Shown piece after piece: positions 602 through 8,530 of a stretch of DNA of 33,547 nucleotides. Under the pieces are notes generated by a model. It was given only the letters and a program-made list of their open reading frames with translations. It was not told where the DNA came from and ran no database searches. Location: positions 1 to 33,547 of the forward strand of contig JAIPIM010000003.1 of NCBI GenBank assembly GCA_021734725.1, given 5' to 3'. The position numbers and the translations under genes are program-made. This stretch comes from Minisyncoccota bacterium. GTDB taxonomy: Bacteria > Verrucomicrobiota > Lentisphaeria > Oligosphaerales > MVZH01. Numbering within the stretch: the first letter of the stretch is position 1; every line of letters starts with the position of its first letter.

Positions 602-2620
602 ATGAACACTACAAAGACATCTGTTGACCGCATGTCCCCCGCGCCGAATACCGAACGCATCGAGCAGTTAAAACGGCTTTTCCCGGAGATCGAATGCGAG
701 GGAAAGATCAATTTTGATACGCTTCGCGAGCTGCTGGACGGCGGGGTGGATGATCGTCCCGAGCGGTATTCGTTCTCGTGGGCCGGAAAACGAGACGCTA
801 TCCGGCTTCTGTCCGCCTCGAGCCGCGCGACGCTGATGCCGGATAGGGATGAGTCACTCGATTTCGACACCACGCAGAACCTGTTTATCGAGGGAGACAA
901 CCTCGAAGCACTGAAGCTGCTCTACAAGTCCTATTTCGGACGGGTCAAGATGATCTATATCGACCCGCCGTACAACACCGGCAACGATTTCGTCTACCCC
1001 GACAACTACCGCGATCCGCTCGATACCTACCTGCAACTGACCGGACAGCGCGACGCCGAGGGCAACCTGCTCACCAGCAACACTGACACCGGCGGCCGCT
1101 ACCACTCCGCCTGGCTCTCGATGATGTACCCCCGCCTCTTCCTCGCCCGTCAACTTCTGCGCGAGGACGGCGTGATCTTCATCTCGGTCGATGACCACGA
1201 AGTCCACAACCTGCGGTTACTCATGAACGAGATTTTCGGGGAGGAGAATTTCGTGGCAACTTTCGTGCGACGAAGGCGGATGGCAACGGCGATGCGGGGG
1301 GAGCCGATTTCGCCAGATCATGAATATGCAGTGTGTTTTGCCAGATCTCGCCAAGCCGTGTGCTTGTTCGGCTCCCTCGCCTCGGTTGGCGATTACCCGC
1401 ATGAAGATGATAAGGGGAAATACAGGAGCACGGACTTAACTGTAGGGATGACAAAGGAAATGCGTCCAAATCAGTGGTTCGAATTGGTTAATCCGCAAAC
1501 AGGCAAGAAATACTCACCCCCGCTTGGTCGGGTATGGAGATTCGAACCAGGTACTATGGCAAGGCATGTGAATGAGCAAAACATCATTTGGCCAGACGAG
1601 AAACCAGACAGCAATATGACCCGTCCAAGGTTCAAAACGCGGTTCGATGATGCCAAAGAGAAGCCCGTGTCAACTTGGATAGCGAAAGAGAAAGACTCAG
1701 GCAATGAAGTTCGCACCTTGAACGGCGCGCTAAATCAGGAAGCCACAAAGGAACTACGGGGAATATTTGGCGAGCAAATACTGGAGTATCCCAAGCCAGT
1801 ATCGCTGCTGGAATCCCTAGTGCAGTGCGGCACGCGTGACAAAGACATCATCATGGATTTCTTCGCCGGTTCAGCCACCACGGCACAAGCAGTCCTGGAG
1901 CTGAACCGAGAGGACGGCGGCAATCGCCGGTTCATCATGGTGCAATTGCCCGAGCGCCTGGAGAAACCGGTACAGCTCGATAATGGCGCGGAGTTGTGTA
2001 CCATCGCGGACATCGGCAAGGAACGCATCCGGCGGGTGGTCGAGAAGATGCAGTCCGAGCGCGAGGGCGAACTTGATCTGTCCGAGCGCGAGACACCGGA
2101 GGATCTGGGATTCCGCGTCTACAAACTGGCCGAGTCCAACTTCCGTCAGTGGGAGGAAAGTCAGAGTTCCGCGTTCACGCGGCAGTTGGAGCAAGCTTCA
2201 GCGAGCGGCTCGGCGGACGCGTCCGATGCGGCAGAAAGCGCTGCCACCCCCTCGGATCCCAAGTCAACCGGAAACACACCTGACAGCGCCGATCTGATCA
2301 AGCAGATGGCGCTGTTCACCGATCCCCTGGTCGACGGCTGGAAGCCCGAGGACGTCATCACTGAAATGACCCTCCGGGAGGGACTCAGCCTGACATCGAT
2401 CATCGAGCGAGTCGACGACATTGCGGAGGCAACCGTCTACCGCGTCACCGACCCCGCCAAGGAGCAGTCATTCACCATCTGCCTCGACGACACCCTCCGC
2501 CTCGAATCCCTGGCGCCGCTCGGCCTGACGCGCGACGACCTGTTCATCTGCCGCGACATCGCTCTCGACGACGAAACCGCCGCCAACCTCGCCCTGCAAT
2601 GCCGGCTGAAGGTGATATGA
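602..2620 (+). CDS. mod: Type III restriction-modification system DNA methyltransferase (Mod)
   Basis: FIEGDNLEALKLL, IYIDPPYNTGNDFVYPDNY (DPPY motif IV) and IIMDFFAGSATTAQAVLELNREDGGNRRFIMVQLPE (FxGxG motif I) in the beta-class Mod order, plus a central variable region. 672 aa. Confidence 0.93.
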   Translation: MNTTKTSVDRMSPAPNTERIEQLKRLFPEIECEGKINFDTLRELLDGGVDDRPERYSFSWAGKRDAIRLLSASSRATLMPDRDESLDFDTTQNLFIEGDNLEALKLLYKSYFGRVKMIYIDPPYNTGNDFVYPDNYRDPLDTYLQLTGQRDAEGNLLTSNTDTGGRYHSAWLSMMYPRLFLARQLLREDGVIFISVDDHEVHNLRLLMNEIFGEENFVATFVRRRRMATAMRGEPISPDHEYAVCFARSRQAVCLFGSLASVGDYPHEDDKGKYRSTDLTVGMTKEMRPNQWFELVNPQTGKKYSPPLGRVWRFEPGTMARHVNEQNIIWPDEKPDSNMTRPRFKTRFDDAKEKPVSTWIAKEKDSGNEVRTLNGALNQEATKELRGIFGEQILEYPKPVSLLESLVQCGTRDKDIIMDFFAGSATTAQAVLELNREDGGNRRFIMVQLPERLEKPVQLDNGAELCTIADIGKERIRRVVEKMQSEREGELDLSERETPEDLGFRVYKLAESNFRQWEESQSSAFTRQLEQASASGSADASDAAESAATPSDPKSTGNTPDSADLIKQMALFTDPLVDGWKPEDVITEMTLREGLSLTSIIERVDDIAEATVYRVTDPAKEQSFTICLDDTLRLESLAPLGLTRDDLFICRDIALDDETAANLALQCRLKVI

Positions 2621-2720
2621 GTACAATCTGCTTTGCCGTTTTTGGCAACACACTTGCATGCGCTAATAAAAAGCAGTATTATTACTCGGCAACCATTGAG
2701 GAGAATCATTCGAGTTCAGC

Positions 2721-5306
2721 ATGAAGTCTAAAATGACAATTCATGAACCTGCGGACGTAATCCCGTTCCTGAAACGCTGCGGCTACTCCCCCCGCAATAT
2801 CCGGCGGGATTATAGCTTCGGTGATTCGGCTCCCGTCCCGGTGGCGGCGTTTGCCCACGAGCCCTGCGATGCCCGAACAGCATGCATTGCAGTCACGGCA
2901 GGCGGAAACGATCCGGAGGCAACGGTGGCGGATCTCCGCAAGCTCGGGGCGCCGGTTGTATTCGTGGTTGGCCATCAGGAGTTTCAGTGGTGGCAGCCAG
3001 GCGCAGAAACCGACAAGCTTCGCCACTCGTATGCGTCGGCACAGGCAGTGAAAGAACTTGACGTGCATCGGGACAAATTGGGGCCGGAGCAACTTTTCCG
3101 GGCCAAGAATTTCGGACGGCAACATCCGAGCTATCAACTCGAGTTCGTTGATCTCGGCCTGTTGCCTTTCGCCGAGAACCAAATGGGAGATACGCTCAGC
3201 TCTCTGATCGAAGATGTCATACAAAGCGTTTGGCGGCAATTGCCGACGCAGAAGGATGAGGGGGCAAAATCCAGGCAATTCCGGAGCCTTTTCGAGACCC
3301 TTTTTCATGTCCTCGCCGGAAAAATCCTTCATGATAAAGAGGTTTCGGGATTCAAACAACTCGACACATCTGATGCCTTCCAGACAATCCAGCGTGTAAG
3401 ACGTCACTATGGCCAAAACCGGTCCCCGCTTGGCGTTGGGAGACTGCCGCAAGAGGTTTTGGTCGAACTGGCTCACCGCATTTCGCAGTTAAGCTCCTTG
3501 TCGAACCTAACAACGGAGACTCTCGGTGCCGTCTATGAGAAGACCCTGGTATCCAAGCAGAACCGTAAACTTTTGGGCATTCACAGCACACCCTCATACC
3601 TGATCGACTACATTGTGTGGGATCTGGTTGACTGGATCGCCGAGATACCCGCGGACCGTCGTCACGTTTATGAACCTTGTTGCGGCCATGCCGGTTTTCT
3701 TGTTGGCGCGATGCGGATGCTGCGGGACTTGTTACTTGGGGAAACACCCTCCATAGATGTAACTGAGCACGACTACCTTCGGGAGCACCTGCACGGGTTA
3801 GAGCTTGATCCGTTTGCCATGGAAATCGCCCGTCTGGGGCTTACTCTTGCCGACGTGCCGAATCCGAACGGCTGGAACTTGAGGCGCGACAACGTTTTTG
3901 CGGCGCAATGGCCCGGCCCCCGAGACCCGGTCCCCGGCATTGTTTTCATGAATCCCCCGTTCGAGAATTTCAAGAAACAGGATCGCGCGGAGTTAGCAAA
4001 CGCCTCGCTTGAGTATCGGAACAAAGCCGCGGAAATATTCTCCCGCCTTGTCAGGCGTCTGCAGCCCGGCGGCGTTTTCGGTGTGGTTCTACCCGAGACT
4101 CTACTTCACAACAAAGAAACCGCGTCGCTTCGGGAACGACTATGCACTGAATTCGAGTTGCGGGAGATCACCCTGTTCCCCGATAAAGTCTTCAATTTCT
4201 CGGACGCCGAATCCGCGGTGCTTCTCGGGCGCCGCAAGAAACCGAAAGCCAATACGGTCCGGGTCAACAGGGTGGACAACCGGGACCTGGATAGCTTCCG
4301 CAAACATCAGGCGCCGTCCGACCGACAGGAATGCTCGCAGCAACGGTTCCGGGAACAGCCCGGGTTTGACCTCAGAATTCCGAGGCTCGATGCCGTTTGG
4401 CAGGAGCTGGAGTACAAGCCGCGATTGAAATCAATCGTAGAAGGAGGGCAAGGTCTCACTTATGTGGCGGAGAAAGAACTTCCGGCGAAAGCCCATGCTG
4501 TAGCCGATCATCCATTCGAAGGTGCTGTGCCCGGTTTCACGAACCCGGGACGCAACGTGATGCTGCACCAACTCCCGCGTGAGCATCGGATGTCCTTGGA
4601 TCCAGAATTGATCGCCGCTCCCAGATGGGGAACCGCCATAGGGCAACCGCAGGTTCTTTTGAACTACGCCCCCGTAAGACGTGGCCCCTGGCGACTCAAA
4701 GCTTTGATTGATCGGGAAGGGCACGCGGTGACAAGCCGCTTCCTGGTTTTTCGGCCCACAGACAAGAGGATACCACTCGATTTCATTTGGGCATTGCTGA
4801 ACTCTCCGGTAGGCAACGCGTTTGCATATTGTCACTTAGGCAAGCGCGACAACCTCTCTGGGACTATGCTTAATATGCCTGTGCCGCGTATTACTGAAGA
4901 GGCCATGGCAGCAGTAACGTGGAAAGTCTGCGAGTACTTTGAAGCAGCAGCGGGGCGGGCGAATTCATTAAGAGCAGAAAGCGAACCAAAACAGCTTCAA
5001 GATTTGCTCCTGCGAATTGACGCCGAGATTCTGCGACTTTACAATCTCCCGCCACGATTAGAGCGGCAGGTTTTGGACCTCTTTCGCGGCCATGAGCGCG
5101 TAGGCGTACCCTTCGTTTTCACCGAGTATTTCCCGCCAGATTTCGGACCATTTATCCCTCTGCATGAGTATCTGTCCCCGGATTACAAACGGGCTACAGC
5201 CGGCGAGCTGCGCAAACGGCTTCGTTCCTTTGACGATCCAGACATTTCAAAAGCGCTGCAGATTGCATGTGAAGCATTCACGCTGGACGAGGAGAATCAA
5301 TCGTGA
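2721..5306 (+). CDS. N-6 adenine DNA methyltransferase, HsdM/type I-IIG-like, with uncharacterised N-terminal region
   Basis: LGIHSTPSYLIDYIVWDLVDWI, HVYEPCCGHAGFLVGAMRML (SAM-binding motif I) and IVFMNPPFENFKKQD (NPPF motif IV), then a C-terminal TRD-like region. 861 aa. AGGAG-like element upstream of the ATG at 2721. Confidence 0.85.
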   Translation: MKSKMTIHEPADVIPFLKRCGYSPRNIRRDYSFGDSAPVPVAAFAHEPCDARTACIAVTAGGNDPEATVADLRKLGAPVVFVVGHQEFQWWQPGAETDKLRHSYASAQAVKELDVHRDKLGPEQLFRAKNFGRQHPSYQLEFVDLGLLPFAENQMGDTLSSLIEDVIQSVWRQLPTQKDEGAKSRQFRSLFETLFHVLAGKILHDKEVSGFKQLDTSDAFQTIQRVRRHYGQNRSPLGVGRLPQEVLVELAHRISQLSSLSNLTTETLGAVYEKTLVSKQNRKLLGIHSTPSYLIDYIVWDLVDWIAEIPADRRHVYEPCCGHAGFLVGAMRMLRDLLLGETPSIDVTEHDYLREHLHGLELDPFAMEIARLGLTLADVPNPNGWNLRRDNVFAAQWPGPRDPVPGIVFMNPPFENFKKQDRAELANASLEYRNKAAEIFSRLVRRLQPGGVFGVVLPETLLHNKETASLRERLCTEFELREITLFPDKVFNFSDAESAVLLGRRKKPKANTVRVNRVDNRDLDSFRKHQAPSDRQECSQQRFREQPGFDLRIPRLDAVWQELEYKPRLKSIVEGGQGLTYVAEKELPAKAHAVADHPFEGAVPGFTNPGRNVMLHQLPREHRMSLDPELIAAPRWGTAIGQPQVLLNYAPVRRGPWRLKALIDREGHAVTSRFLVFRPTDKRIPLDFIWALLNSPVGNAFAYCHLGKRDNLSGTMLNMPVPRITEEAMAAVTWKVCEYFEAAAGRANSLRAESEPKQLQDLLLRIDAEILRLYNLPPRLERQVLDLFRGHERVGVPFVFTEYFPPDFGPFIPLHEYLSPDYKRATAGELRKRLRSFDDPDISKALQIACEAFTLDEENQS

Positions 5307-5824
5307 GGGGATGGCTGCTTGACACCAATATTCTGCGATCACTGACTGATCGTAAACATGAACACCATAATGCTGTTGCCGCCCGCCTGCAGGAAATACC
5401 CTCAACAGAGCCGGTGTATGTTTCTGCGGTAACCGCTGGGGAAGTCGAGTACGGCATCCGGTGCTACCCCAAGATGCCGTCGGAAAAGAAGCATCTATTG
5501 CGCTTTGTGCTGGACGATTTTCTCCTCCTAACGATCACGGAGAATACCAAAGCCCCATACGCTTCAATACGTGCCAAGCTCTTCGAAAACACAATCAAGA
5601 AGGGGAAGAAAGGCATGCGCCCTGAGCAGATCGTCGATCCGGTAACATCCCTCCGCCTGGGAGTGCAAGAGAATGATATCTGGATCACGGCCCAGGCGGT
5701 TGAGCGCGGCCTCACGCTGGTCACGCATGACAGGAAGATGCAGCGTTTGTGGGAAGCTGCAAATGGTGACTTGCGGGTGGCGGATTGGGGCGATCCTGAG
5801 TTTGCCTGGCCGGAGAATGGATAG
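5303..5824 (+). CDS. PIN-domain nuclease (VapC-like), no adjacent antitoxin
   Basis: LLDTNILRSL, TAGEVEYGI, ENDIWITAQAVERGLTLVTHDRKM: all four canonical PIN acidic positions are present. GTG start overlaps the MTase TGA (GTGA), with GAGGAG about 7 nt upstream. Confidence 0.87.
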   Translation: MRGWLLDTNILRSLTDRKHEHHNAVAARLQEIPSTEPVYVSAVTAGEVEYGIRCYPKMPSEKKHLLRFVLDDFLLLTITENTKAPYASIRAKLFENTIKKGKKGMRPEQIVDPVTSLRLGVQENDIWITAQAVERGLTLVTHDRKMQRLWEAANGDLRVADWGDPEFAWPENG

Positions 5825-5827
5825 TTG

Positions 5828-8530
5828 ATGCATCTCCAATTTGACGCCAATCAAGAGTATCAGATTGCCGCGATCGAGGCTGTGGCGGATTTATTTGACG
5901 GGCAGCCGCGGGTCGATGCCGCGATGGATTTCTCGCTGTCCGCCGGGTTTGCCGCGGTTGCGAATCGGTTGGAGCTTTCCGAGGATGCGTTGTTGCAGAA
6001 CCTGGCCGGCGTTCAACAAGCGAACGGCATCCCGCCGGAGGAAGCGCTGCAATGGATCGCCGATGAAATCACAACAGCCGACGGCACCGAGCAGGTGCAG
6101 TTCGCGAATTTCTCGGTCGAGATGGAGACGGGGACGGGCAAGACGTATGTCTACATCCGTACCGCGCTGGAACTGTTTCAGCGGTACGGGTTCCGCAAGT
6201 TTATCATTGTCGTTCCCTCGGTAGCCATCCGCGAGGGCGTGCTCAAGACGTTCCAGATAACCCGTTCTCATCTGACCGGCCTCTATGACAACCTCCCATA
6301 CCGGTTCACGGTATACGATTCCTCGAACTTGTCTCAGGTCCGCCAGTTCGCGCTCTCGGACAGTGTCGAGTTCATGATCATGACCATCGACTCGTTCAAC
6401 AAAGCATCGAACGTGATCCGGCAAAGCACCGATCATCTGCAGGGCGAGACGCCGATCCATCTTTTGCAGGCAACCCGTCCCGTTCTGGTCCTGGACGAAC
6501 CGCAGAACATGGAAAGCGAATTGCGTATCAAGGCCCTGGCCAATCTCAACCCGCTCTTCGCCCTGCGGTACAGCGCCACCCACCGGAATCCCTACAATCT
6601 CGTCCACCGCCTCACGCCGTACGAAGCATACCGGCAGGGGCTGGTGAAACAGATCGAGGTGGCCGGGATCGAAGAACGGAATGAAAATCAGGCGTTTCTC
6701 CGACTCGATGGATTCAAGACAACGGCGAATACTGTTGCCGCCAGGCTTGCGGTTCACAAGCTCATGAAAGACGGGACGGTCAAAGAGAAAGTGGTGACGG
6801 TCAAGCCCGGGGATTCCCTCGCAGACAAAGCCAACCGCAGCGAATATGGCGAGTTCATGGTAGAAGAGATCGATGCCGGCTTGTGCGTGGTCCGCTTCAG
6901 CAACCGGATGGAGCTGAGCAAGGGCGAAACGCACGGCCCGGACAAGGAGGCCATATTCCGGGAACAGATCCGCTACACGGTTGAGCGGCATTTCCGAAAA
7001 CAGAAACAACTCGCACCGCACGGCATCAAGGTGTTGTCGCTGTTCTTCATTGATCGCGTCTCGAACTACCGCAACGAGAATGGGGAAGACGGCCTGATCC
7101 GGGGCCTTTTCGACGAAACCTTCAATGAGGCGAAAGCGTACTACCCGGAATGGCAGTCCAAAGCCCCTGGGGACGTTCAGGCGGCGTATTTCGCACAAAA
7201 ACGAAAGCGCGGAGGCGACACCATTCTCGAAGACAGCACCACCGGCGAGGCCAAGAAGGATATCGAGGCGTACGACTTGATCATGCGGGACAAGGAGCGC
7301 CTCCTGTCATTCGATGAATCCACCTGCTTCATCTTCTCGCATTCAGCACTTCGTGAGGGGTGGGATAATCCGAACGTATTTCAGATATGCACTCTGAACC
7401 AGAGCGTCTCCGAAATGCGCAAGCGCCAGGAGATCGGTCGCGGTGTCCGTCTTGCCGTGAACCAGGACGGTTTGCGGGTTCGCGAAGACGGCATCAACAT
7501 TCTCACGGTGGTCGCGAACGAAAGCTATCAAAAATATTGCGACCGCTACCAGACCGAACTGGCGGACGAAGTCGACGGGGCCAGCCTTCCCCCGAAACCG
7601 TCAAATGCTCGCAAGAAAATTACGGCCCGTTTGCGGAAGCAGTATATGCTCAAGCCCGCGTTCAAAGAGCTTTGGGAACGAATCAAGCACAAGACCCGGT
7701 ACGCCGTGAAGATCGACACGGAGAAGCTTATTGAAGACGTACTGGATGTACTGGACCAAACCGACATCCGTGCCCCGGAGATCGCGGTTTCCACCGCCCG
7801 GATGCAAGTTGACGGCCGGAAAGATGAGCTGCGGGCCATCAAGATCGGCGAGAAACGCGGCGCTTGGCCGAACAGTTCGACGAAAGCTCAAACCAATATT
7901 GTTGAATTGATGAATGACCTGATGCAACGCACAACGCCGCCGATGCGGCTGACACGCCGCACGCTGCTTGAAATCTTTCGCCGCACTCGGAACCGCAACG
8001 AAGCAGCGCGCAACCCCCATGAGTTCGCGGCCACTGCAGTCCAGATCATAAAACAGAAGCTCACTGACCAGTTGATTGACGGAATCCAGTATGAGCGTAT
8101 CCATGACTGGTACCGCATGGAACAGTTCGAGAACGAAATCGAAAGCTGGGAAGAGTATGCCGTTCCCGCTGACCGGTCGCTTTATGACCACGTGATTTCC
8201 GATTCCGACATCGAGAAGCAATTCGTTCAGGATATGGAACGGAGAGATGACGTAAAACTCTACATCAAGCTGCCCGGCTGGTTTACGGTTCAAACCCCCA
8301 TCGGTCAGTACAATCCCGACTGGGCAGTGGTCATCGAACCGCGAGATGAGTTCGGCAATCCCACAGAAGAAGAAATGCTGTACCTGGTAAGCGAGACCAA
8401 GGGGACCGGTAACCTGGACAAACTTCGCCCCGATGAACAACGGCGAATACACTGTGGCAAACGCCATTTCGAAAATACACTCCACATTCCTTACCGCGTC
8501 GTAGCGAACGCCGGACAATTACACGGCTAG
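5828..8530 (+). CDS. res: Type III restriction enzyme Res subunit (DEAD/DEAH helicase plus endonuclease)
   Basis: METGTGKTYVYIRTALELF (Walker A), PVLVLDEPQNM (motif II), RYSATHRN (motif III), QEIGRGVRLAVNQDG (motif VI) and C-terminal YNPDWAVV...LVSETKG (PD-ExK). The supplied ORF starts at TTG 5825; ATG 5828 is more likely, 3 nt after the PIN stop. Confidence 0.93.
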   Translation: MHLQFDANQEYQIAAIEAVADLFDGQPRVDAAMDFSLSAGFAAVANRLELSEDALLQNLAGVQQANGIPPEEALQWIADEITTADGTEQVQFANFSVEMETGTGKTYVYIRTALELFQRYGFRKFIIVVPSVAIREGVLKTFQITRSHLTGLYDNLPYRFTVYDSSNLSQVRQFALSDSVEFMIMTIDSFNKASNVIRQSTDHLQGETPIHLLQATRPVLVLDEPQNMESELRIKALANLNPLFALRYSATHRNPYNLVHRLTPYEAYRQGLVKQIEVAGIEERNENQAFLRLDGFKTTANTVAARLAVHKLMKDGTVKEKVVTVKPGDSLADKANRSEYGEFMVEEIDAGLCVVRFSNRMELSKGETHGPDKEAIFREQIRYTVERHFRKQKQLAPHGIKVLSLFFIDRVSNYRNENGEDGLIRGLFDETFNEAKAYYPEWQSKAPGDVQAAYFAQKRKRGGDTILEDSTTGEAKKDIEAYDLIMRDKERLLSFDESTCFIFSHSALREGWDNPNVFQICTLNQSVSEMRKRQEIGRGVRLAVNQDGLRVREDGINILTVVANESYQKYCDRYQTELADEVDGASLPPKPSNARKKITARLRKQYMLKPAFKELWERIKHKTRYAVKIDTEKLIEDVLDVLDQTDIRAPEIAVSTARMQVDGRKDELRAIKIGEKRGAWPNSSTKAQTNIVELMNDLMQRTTPPMRLTRRTLLEIFRRTRNRNEAARNPHEFAATAVQIIKQKLTDQLIDGIQYERIHDWYRMEQFENEIESWEEYAVPADRSLYDHVISDSDIEKQFVQDMERRDDVKLYIKLPGWFTVQTPIGQYNPDWAVVIEPRDEFGNPTEEEMLYLVSETKGTGNLDKLRPDEQRRIHCGKRHFENTLHIPYRVVANAGQLHG

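What the first reader, a model, noticed from the sequence alone, without database searches (positions are those of the whole stretch)
602..8530. Composite restriction-modification operon: Mod + second N6-MTase + PIN nuclease + Res
Classical type III R-M systems are mod-res pairs. Here two extra genes sit between recognisable Mod and Res: an 861-aa HsdM-like adenine MTase and a PIN nuclease. The MTase stop overlaps the PIN start, and Res starts 3 nt after the PIN stop, so the extra genes look like integral parts rather than chance insertions. It lacks the core proteins expected of BREX (PglZ/BrxC) or DISARM (DrmA/DrmB). It may be a four-component defence system with two methylases and two nucleases, one DNA-directed (Res) and one potentially RNA-directed (PIN). 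I cannot tell whether this arrangement is already catalogued.
Basis: partly seen in the sequence, partly recalled or inferred. Interest (0 to 1): 0.72.

Follow-up and report, generated by a model that had tools for sequence, protein, structure and literature searches.

The report
Toxin-methyltransferase pair inside restriction operon
A bacterial restriction operon carries, wedged between its two normal genes, a travelling gene pair: a DNA methyltransferase whose tail appears made to hold a partner RNA-cutting toxin. In relatives the toxin is swapped for others and the tail changes with it, which points to a DNA-sensing enzyme used as a leash for interchangeable toxins.

Summary
All four genes are real, complete and carry intact catalytic motifs. 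Mod (602-2620) and Res (5825-8530) form an EcoP15I-type III restriction-modification system. The 861-aa MTase (2721-5306) and PIN protein (5303-5824) are not integral parts of it. They are an independent two-gene module. In 84 homologous MTase loci from about a dozen phyla, every one whose contig continues (82) has a small effector gene directly downstream: PIN 72, HNH 6, RES 3, unclassified 1. Only the window and two others also have mod/res. The MTase C-terminal tail switches with the effector rather than with the MTase core phylogeny. RES-type tails carry an Xre/MbcA/ParS antitoxin-like domain, the known partner of RES toxins. This suggests a methyltransferase-tethered toxin: the MTase holds and inhibits a swappable effector. 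In same-phylum type III loci the mod-res gap holds same-strand extra genes in about half, and those identified are mostly defence or toxin families (VapBC, Abi_2, GmrSD, YhcG, RhuM, Fic, Schlafen), so it is a cargo slot. The closest known concept is PrrC embedded in the EcoprrI type I locus. Restraint by the MTase, RNA as PIN target, the trigger and phage defence are inferred, not shown. I found no description of this module in the papers searched.

The parts
602..2620 (+). Mod: type III adenine methyltransferase/specificity subunit (EcoP15I type)
   Evidence: PF01555 1.4e-33; PADLOC MTase_III 6e-178; PDB 6k0w 3e-80, 4zcf; DPPY and FAGSAT present
2621..2720 (+). 100-nt gap between Mod and the second MTase; AT-rich, might hold a separate promoter for the MTase-PIN pair (no consensus match above threshold)
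   Evidence: sequence, scan
2721..5306 (+). Second adenine MTase (CamA/PglX/type IIG-like, own target-recognition domain), core of the MTase-effector module
   Evidence: PF02384 6.2e-18; AF2 pLDDT 86.5; Foldseek CamA 1.6e-21, BpuSI, PglX; 84 homologous loci
2721..3065 (+). N-terminal alpha/beta domain of the MTase (aa 1-115), no conserved E-x-K, so probably not an active nuclease
   Evidence: secondary structure of model; conservation over 78 homologues
3951..3962 (+). Catalytic NPPF motif (motif IV) of the second MTase, aa 411-414
   Evidence: NPP(F/W/Y) in 84/84 homologues
5118..5303 (+). PIN-type C-terminal tail of the MTase (aa 800-861), proposed effector-docking/antitoxin segment
   Evidence: matches PIN-associated tails, not HNH- or RES-associated tails; extended or low-confidence in the model
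5303..5824 (+). PIN-domain nuclease (VapC-like), effector of the module; tetrad D7, E47, D125, D143 invariant in 69/69 relatives
   Evidence: PF01850 4.6e-14; NCBIfam VapC hit 9e-12, below cut-off; conservation
5825..8530 (+). Res: type III restriction subunit (helicase plus C-terminal PD-(D/E)XK endonuclease)
   Evidence: PF04851, PF19778; PADLOC REase_III 1e-239; PDB 4zcf_C 4e-54; motifs intact

Best explanation
A portable two-gene module, a DNA adenine methyltransferase plus a PIN RNase, has been inserted into the mod-res gap of an EcoP15I-type III restriction system, a gap that is a recurrent cargo slot in related loci. Proposed mechanism: the MTase scans and methylates host DNA through its own target-recognition domain and, with a dedicated C-terminal tail, holds the PIN toxin bound and silent (MTase as antitoxin and sensor). 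When the MTase is disturbed (foreign or unmethylated DNA, a phage anti-restriction protein, or loss of the locus) the PIN nuclease is freed and cuts RNA, probably tRNA, stopping growth. Mod-Res is then first-line DNA restriction and MTase-PIN a second-line suicide or dormancy module. Shown by sequence: an obligate MTase-effector pair, effector exchange, matching tail exchange, an antitoxin-like domain on RES-type tails, conserved catalytic residues, modularity relative to mod/res. Inferred: physical binding, inhibition, RNA as PIN target, trigger, phage defence.
For: 82 of 82 untruncated MTase loci have an effector directly downstream: PIN 72, HNH 6 (L026 found), RES 3, unclassified 1. The effector is exchanged at least 4 times on the MTase core tree, RES twice independently. 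The tail follows the effector: a model of planctomycete PIN-type tails finds the window tail at 1.1e-18 and PIN tails of MTases with only ~30% identical cores at 1e-7 to 1e-13, but HNH tails only at >0.1, although HNH-clade cores (42%) are as close to the window as PIN ones. L026's tail was classed HNH-type before its HNH gene was found. RES-type tails match the Xre/MbcA/ParS antitoxin domains (PF09722, PF23125, TIGR02293 2.4e-6, RES/Xre antitoxin 4.6e-4). PIN tetrad invariant 69/69. PIN and MTase distances correlate, Mantel r 0.82, 0/2000 permutations. No PIN of this subfamily apart from the window's in 390 same-phylum genomes. Precedent: PrrC is kept inactive by the EcoprrI complex and released when phage T4 Stp inhibits it (PMC12707154; PMC3710099).
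Against: No experiment. The antitoxin-domain matches are below Pfam/NCBIfam curated cut-offs, and there are only three RES cases. The PIN-type tail shows no visible similarity to the VapB antitoxins beside the nearest free-standing VapC relatives. Neighbouring genes are only weakly enriched for known defence families, so a defence role rests mainly on the window and a few loci. HNH effectors are normally DNA nucleases, compatible with plain restriction. A planned structure prediction of the RES-type tail could not be run.
Confidence: 0.58

Rival explanations
1. Two-subunit restriction-modification: the MTase recognises and methylates a site and its tail recruits the downstream nuclease (PIN or HNH) to cut unmethylated DNA; PIN acts as a DNA nuclease.
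For: HNH is a common restriction nuclease fold and replaces PIN in 6 loci; the MTase has its own target-recognition domain; a docking tail fits subunit recruitment equally well.
Against: RES replaces the nuclease in 3 loci on two branches and RES domains are NAD-attacking toxins (own knowledge), not nucleases; RES tails match antitoxin domains; the PIN is VapC-like, i.e. RNase-type; the module has no ATPase/translocase.
Confidence: 0.22
2. Four-component integrated system: Mod, MTase, PIN and Res work as one machine.
For: Tight packing with overlaps; L060 and L049 also place mod-res beside MTase-PIN.
Against: 81/84 MTase-effector loci lack adjacent mod/res; the same mod-res gap carries unrelated cargos in related loci; gene order differs (MTase-PIN lies before mod in L049 and L060).
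Confidence: 0.08
3. Selfish addiction cassette: MTase-toxin pair maintained by post-segregational killing, with no role in phage defence, inserted by chance.
For: Toxin-antitoxin-like anatomy; occurrence on plasmids; weak defence-island signal.
Against: A DNA-sensing MTase is a costly antitoxin unless sensing matters; placement in the mod-res slot, which otherwise carries mostly defence and toxin genes. Mechanistically it overlaps with the best explanation.
Confidence: 0.12

Closest known systems
PrrC anticodon nuclease embedded in the EcoprrI type I hsd locus
   Same: RNA-cutting toxin gene embedded in a restriction operon and held silent by restriction proteins; second-line response when restriction is blocked (PMC12707154, PMC3710099)
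   Different: Type III host locus; toxin is PIN, not ABC-HEPN; it comes with its own MTase rather than being held by the host locus's subunits; the module is portable and effector-swappable
VapBC and RES-Xre type II toxin-antitoxin systems
   Same: PIN (VapC) or RES toxin downstream of its presumed neutralising partner; RES-type tails resemble the Xre/MbcA/ParS antitoxin
   Different: The antitoxin function would sit on an ~830-900 aa DNA methyltransferase; PIN-type tail not recognisably VapB
Panacea (PanA) hyperpromiscuous antitoxins
   Same: One conserved sensor-like core with exchangeable toxins and matching neutralisation domains (PMC10440598)
   Different: Core is a DNA methyltransferase, unrelated to PanA
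EcoP15I-type III restriction-modification
   Same: Mod and Res with all motifs, same gene order
   Different: 3.2-kb cargo between mod and res
BREX PglX / type IIG / CamA adenine methyltransferases
   Same: Fold of the second MTase
   Different: No PglZ/BrxC; no nuclease triad in the MTase; effector encoded separately
BREX auxiliary/backup effectors (HEPN, PIN, Schlafen, OLD, HNH)
   Same: Backup effectors recruited next to methylation-based defence (PMC12839542)
   Different: There they flank a multi-gene BREX core; here one MTase plus one matched effector is the whole module

Membership tests
Type III restriction-modification (mod/res) | Mod with N6/N4 MTase domain and DPPY motif | tested here: met
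Type III restriction-modification (mod/res) | Res with SF2 helicase and C-terminal PD-(D/E)XK endonuclease | tested here: met
   PF04851, PF19778, motifs
Type III restriction-modification (mod/res) | Extra MTase-PIN pair conserved as part of the system | tested here: not met
   Only 3/84 MTase-effector loci have mod/res; related mod-res loci carry other cargos or none
BREX | PglZ and BrxC/PglY next to PglX | tested here: not met
   Not among the four operon genes or the ten further window proteins scanned
DISARM | DrmA/DrmB/DrmC | tested here: not met
   No such families in the operon or scanned neighbours
MADS (methylation-associated defence) | MAD2 MTase at equivalog level with the other mad genes | tested here: not met
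   NCBIfam MAD2 27 bits against cut-off 720
VapBC toxin-antitoxin | PIN toxin with intact acidic tetrad | tested here: met
VapBC toxin-antitoxin | Small VapB antitoxin directly upstream | tested here: not met
   The upstream gene is the 861-aa MTase; no VapB-like ORF; tail not VapB-like
Toxin-antitoxin (any) | Toxin arrests growth and partner neutralises it | not testable with these tools
   needs expression assay
RES/Xre toxin-antitoxin (RES variants of the module) | RES toxin plus Xre/MbcA/ParS domain partner | tested here: inconclusive
   RES PF08808 1.5e-16; tail matches PF09722/PF23125/TIGR02293 below curated cut-offs
Type IIG restriction enzyme (second MTase) | Active PD-(D/E)XK nuclease in the MTase polypeptide | tested here: not met
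   No conserved E-x-K in the N-terminal domain
PrrC-type embedded toxin | ABC-HEPN anticodon nuclease inside a type I hsd locus | tested here: not met
   PIN instead of ABC-HEPN, type III instead of type I; works-like claim only

The most novel reading that the evidence does not exclude
A new class of modular immune system, methyltransferase-tethered toxins: one conserved DNA-methyltransferase chassis whose exchangeable C-terminal tail docks and silences one of several unrelated effectors (PIN RNase, HNH nuclease, RES NAD-attacking toxin, a fourth unclassified one) and releases it on sensing foreign or unprotected DNA or MTase inhibition.
Probability: 0.45. Interest if true: 0.8.

Novelty: new variant of a known kind. 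Interest (0 to 1): 0.62.

Why it matters
It would link restriction-modification and toxin-antitoxin systems at the protein level: a DNA methyltransferase acting as the antitoxin and sensor for interchangeable toxins. It is directly testable by toxicity rescue, complex formation and tail swaps. It also shows the mod-res gap of type III operons as a place to look for unknown defence and toxin genes, as hsd loci were for PrrC.

Tried and rejected
(1) The four-component integrated machine: rejected on synteny. (2) BREX, DISARM and MADS membership: rejected. (3) Viral spread: no relative of the MTase in 2.9 million viral contigs. (4) Search for free-standing PIN relatives whose antitoxin resembles the MTase tail: nearest are cyanobacterial and Herpetosiphon plasmid VapCs with small DUF2281-type or other short antitoxins, no similarity to the tail. 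(5) Defence-island enrichment around the MTase loci against distant genes: only weakly different. (6) Effector of L062: HEPN-like by eye, no database support. (7) Structure prediction of the RES-type tail: machine busy. (8) Ten literature searches found no description of this module or of a type III mod-res cargo slot, but the held library lacks most subscription papers and bioRxiv preprints.

Full report
OBSERVATION. The four genes exist as described, with type III Mod and Res around an 861-aa N6-adenine MTase and a 173-aa PIN protein. Junctions: a 100-nt gap Mod-MTase, GTGA overlap MTase-PIN, TAG-TTG-ATG PIN-Res. Catalytic motifs are intact in all four. The flanks are ordinary chromosomal genes (glycosyltransferase 9, AI-2E transporter, LOG-like, RdgC, UvrB and others), so the cassette stands alone in this window.

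THE SECOND MTASE IS ITS OWN SYSTEM. Tblastn found three full-length plasmid relatives (28-30% identity); two are followed by PIN and one by a RES-domain toxin. A profile of these four recovered 80 genome loci, closest (about 40%) in Planctomycetota and also in Verrucomicrobiota, Acidobacteriota, Chloroflexota, Desulfobacterota, Pseudomonadota, Nitrospirota and others. With the window and the three plasmids this makes 84 loci. All 82 whose contig continues past the MTase have an effector ORF directly downstream, usually overlapping or within about 15 nt: PIN in 72, HNH in 6, RES in 3, an unclassified 127-aa protein in 1 (L026's HNH gene). The PIN tetrad D7/E47/D125/D143 is invariant in 69/69 full PINs. 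MTase and PIN distances correlate (Mantel r 0.82), so the pair is inherited together. A PIN-profile search of 390 same-phylum genomes found no other member of this PIN subfamily. About 50 of 84 loci, mostly Pseudomonadota and Desulfobacterota, also have a conserved ~150-190 aa upstream ORF (HTH-like by eye, no Pfam match), usually with a 4-nt overlap; the window lacks it.

TAIL AND EFFECTOR CHANGE TOGETHER. The effector changed at least four times on the tree of the MTase core, RES twice independently (FastTree only, and the window's own branch is long). The MTase C-terminus changes with it. PIN partners go with a ~65-78 aa tail (consensus around YFPxxFxPxIPLHxYLS in many). HNH partners go with a ~95-106 aa helical-looking tail. 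RES partners go with a ~160-180 aa tail. A model built from planctomycete PIN-type tails finds the window tail at 1.1e-18 and PIN-type tails of MTases with only ~30% identical cores at 1e-7 to 1e-13, but no HNH- or RES-type tail below 0.1, even though the HNH-clade cores are as close to the window as the PIN-clade cores (42% versus 41-42%). Some far alphaproteobacterial PIN tails are not found by this model. The HNH and RES tail models score their own training rows by construction; L026, which was not in training, was classed as HNH-type (3e-23) and then found to have an intact HNH gene. RES-type tails match the Xre/MbcA/ParS antitoxin: PF09722 1.5e-4 and PF23125 1e-3 in L002, PF23125 8e-5 in L079, TIGR02293 2.4e-6 and RES/Xre antitoxin 4.6e-4 in L002. 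All are below curated cut-offs, but they occur exactly where a RES toxin follows.

STRUCTURE. AF2 on 25 aligned homologues gave pLDDT 86.5 and pTM 0.82. Foldseek matches CamA (1.6e-21), M.BseCI, BpuSI and BREX PglX: a self-sufficient adenine MTase with its own target-recognition domain, so it needs neither HsdS nor Mod. The N-terminal alpha/beta domain has no conserved E-x-K, so I assign no nuclease activity to it. The tail is extended or weakly structured in the model, as expected for a segment that folds on a partner (inference).

THE MOD-RES GAP IS A CARGO SLOT. Res relatives occur in 43 of 390 same-phylum genomes. In the loci where both Mod and Res could be seen, 11 have mod and res abutting (gap of at most 14 nt), and about 17 besides the window carry same-strand genes between them. 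Pfam assignments of sampled cargos: C5 MTase + GHKL ATPase + receiver-like (L115), Eco57I-type MTase + 233-aa ORF (L117), PIN of a VapBC-like pair (L119, res first), Abi_2 + GmrSD (L120), DUF3800 (L121), ORF6N (L122), Schlafen AlbA_2 (L130, L141), YhcG (L138), GmrSD (L139), RhuM (L142, L144), Fic (L144, L149), AAA_21/OLD-like (L147). A few other gaps were ambiguous because of ORF calling. In the desulfobacterial L049 the order is MTase-PIN-Mod-(two small ORFs resembling an MNT-HEPN pair by eye)-Res and in L060 MTase-PIN-Mod-Res. Tight spacing in the window is therefore what any cargo in this slot shows and is not evidence of one machine.

MECHANISM. The simplest account of an obligate pair, swapped effectors, a matching tail and an antitoxin-like domain in the RES version is that the MTase tethers and silences the effector and releases it when disturbed. 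Precedent exists for the principle: PrrC is embedded in and silenced by a type Ic restriction system and freed by the phage T4 Stp peptide (PMC12707154; PMC3710099), and Panacea antitoxins combine one core with many toxins (PMC10440598). The main rival is that PIN and HNH are DNA-cutting restriction subunits; the RES variants speak against it. No binding, toxicity, methylation or phage protection has been measured.

NOVELTY. Toxins embedded in restriction operons are a known concept (PMC3710099), as are backup effectors including PIN in BREX (PMC12839542). I found no description of an MTase chassis with swappable effectors and effector-matched tails, nor of the type III mod-res cargo slot, in ten searches of an open-access library; subscription papers and bioRxiv were not searched. 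PADLOC-DB 2.0.0 has no model matching the PIN and places the MTase only among generic MTases. I therefore call it a new variant of a known kind.

Noticed in passing
L117:2832-11206 (G320:C68): Same architecture with unrelated parts: Mod - Eco57I-type MTase (1009 aa) - 233-aa ORF without Pfam match - Res, all overlapping; possibly a second independent MTase-effector cargo.
   Followed up: partly
upstream of the MTase in about 50 of 84 loci, e.g. L063:9483-9965: Conserved ~160-aa HTH-like ORF with no Pfam or NCBIfam match, 4-nt overlap with the MTase; candidate regulator of the module.
   Followed up: partly
L062:5041-5424: Unclassified 127-aa effector in place of PIN, HEPN-like by eye (RNKCDY), with its own unique MTase tail.
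   Followed up: partly
L049:15687-16320: Two small ORFs resembling an MNT-HEPN pair by eye lie between mod and res of a desulfobacterial type III locus that also has the MTase-PIN module upstream.
   Followed up: no
L161 and L163: Nearest free-standing VapC relatives on cyanobacterial plasmids sit with a short antitoxin next to an MmeI-type enzyme or a DNA methyltransferase and a DEAD/DEAH helicase, another toxin-inside-restriction-locus arrangement.
   Followed up: no
window:20965-24144: 1060-aa fusion of a fucose pyrophosphorylase domain and a GHMP kinase domain; ordinary chromosomal neighbour.
   Followed up: no
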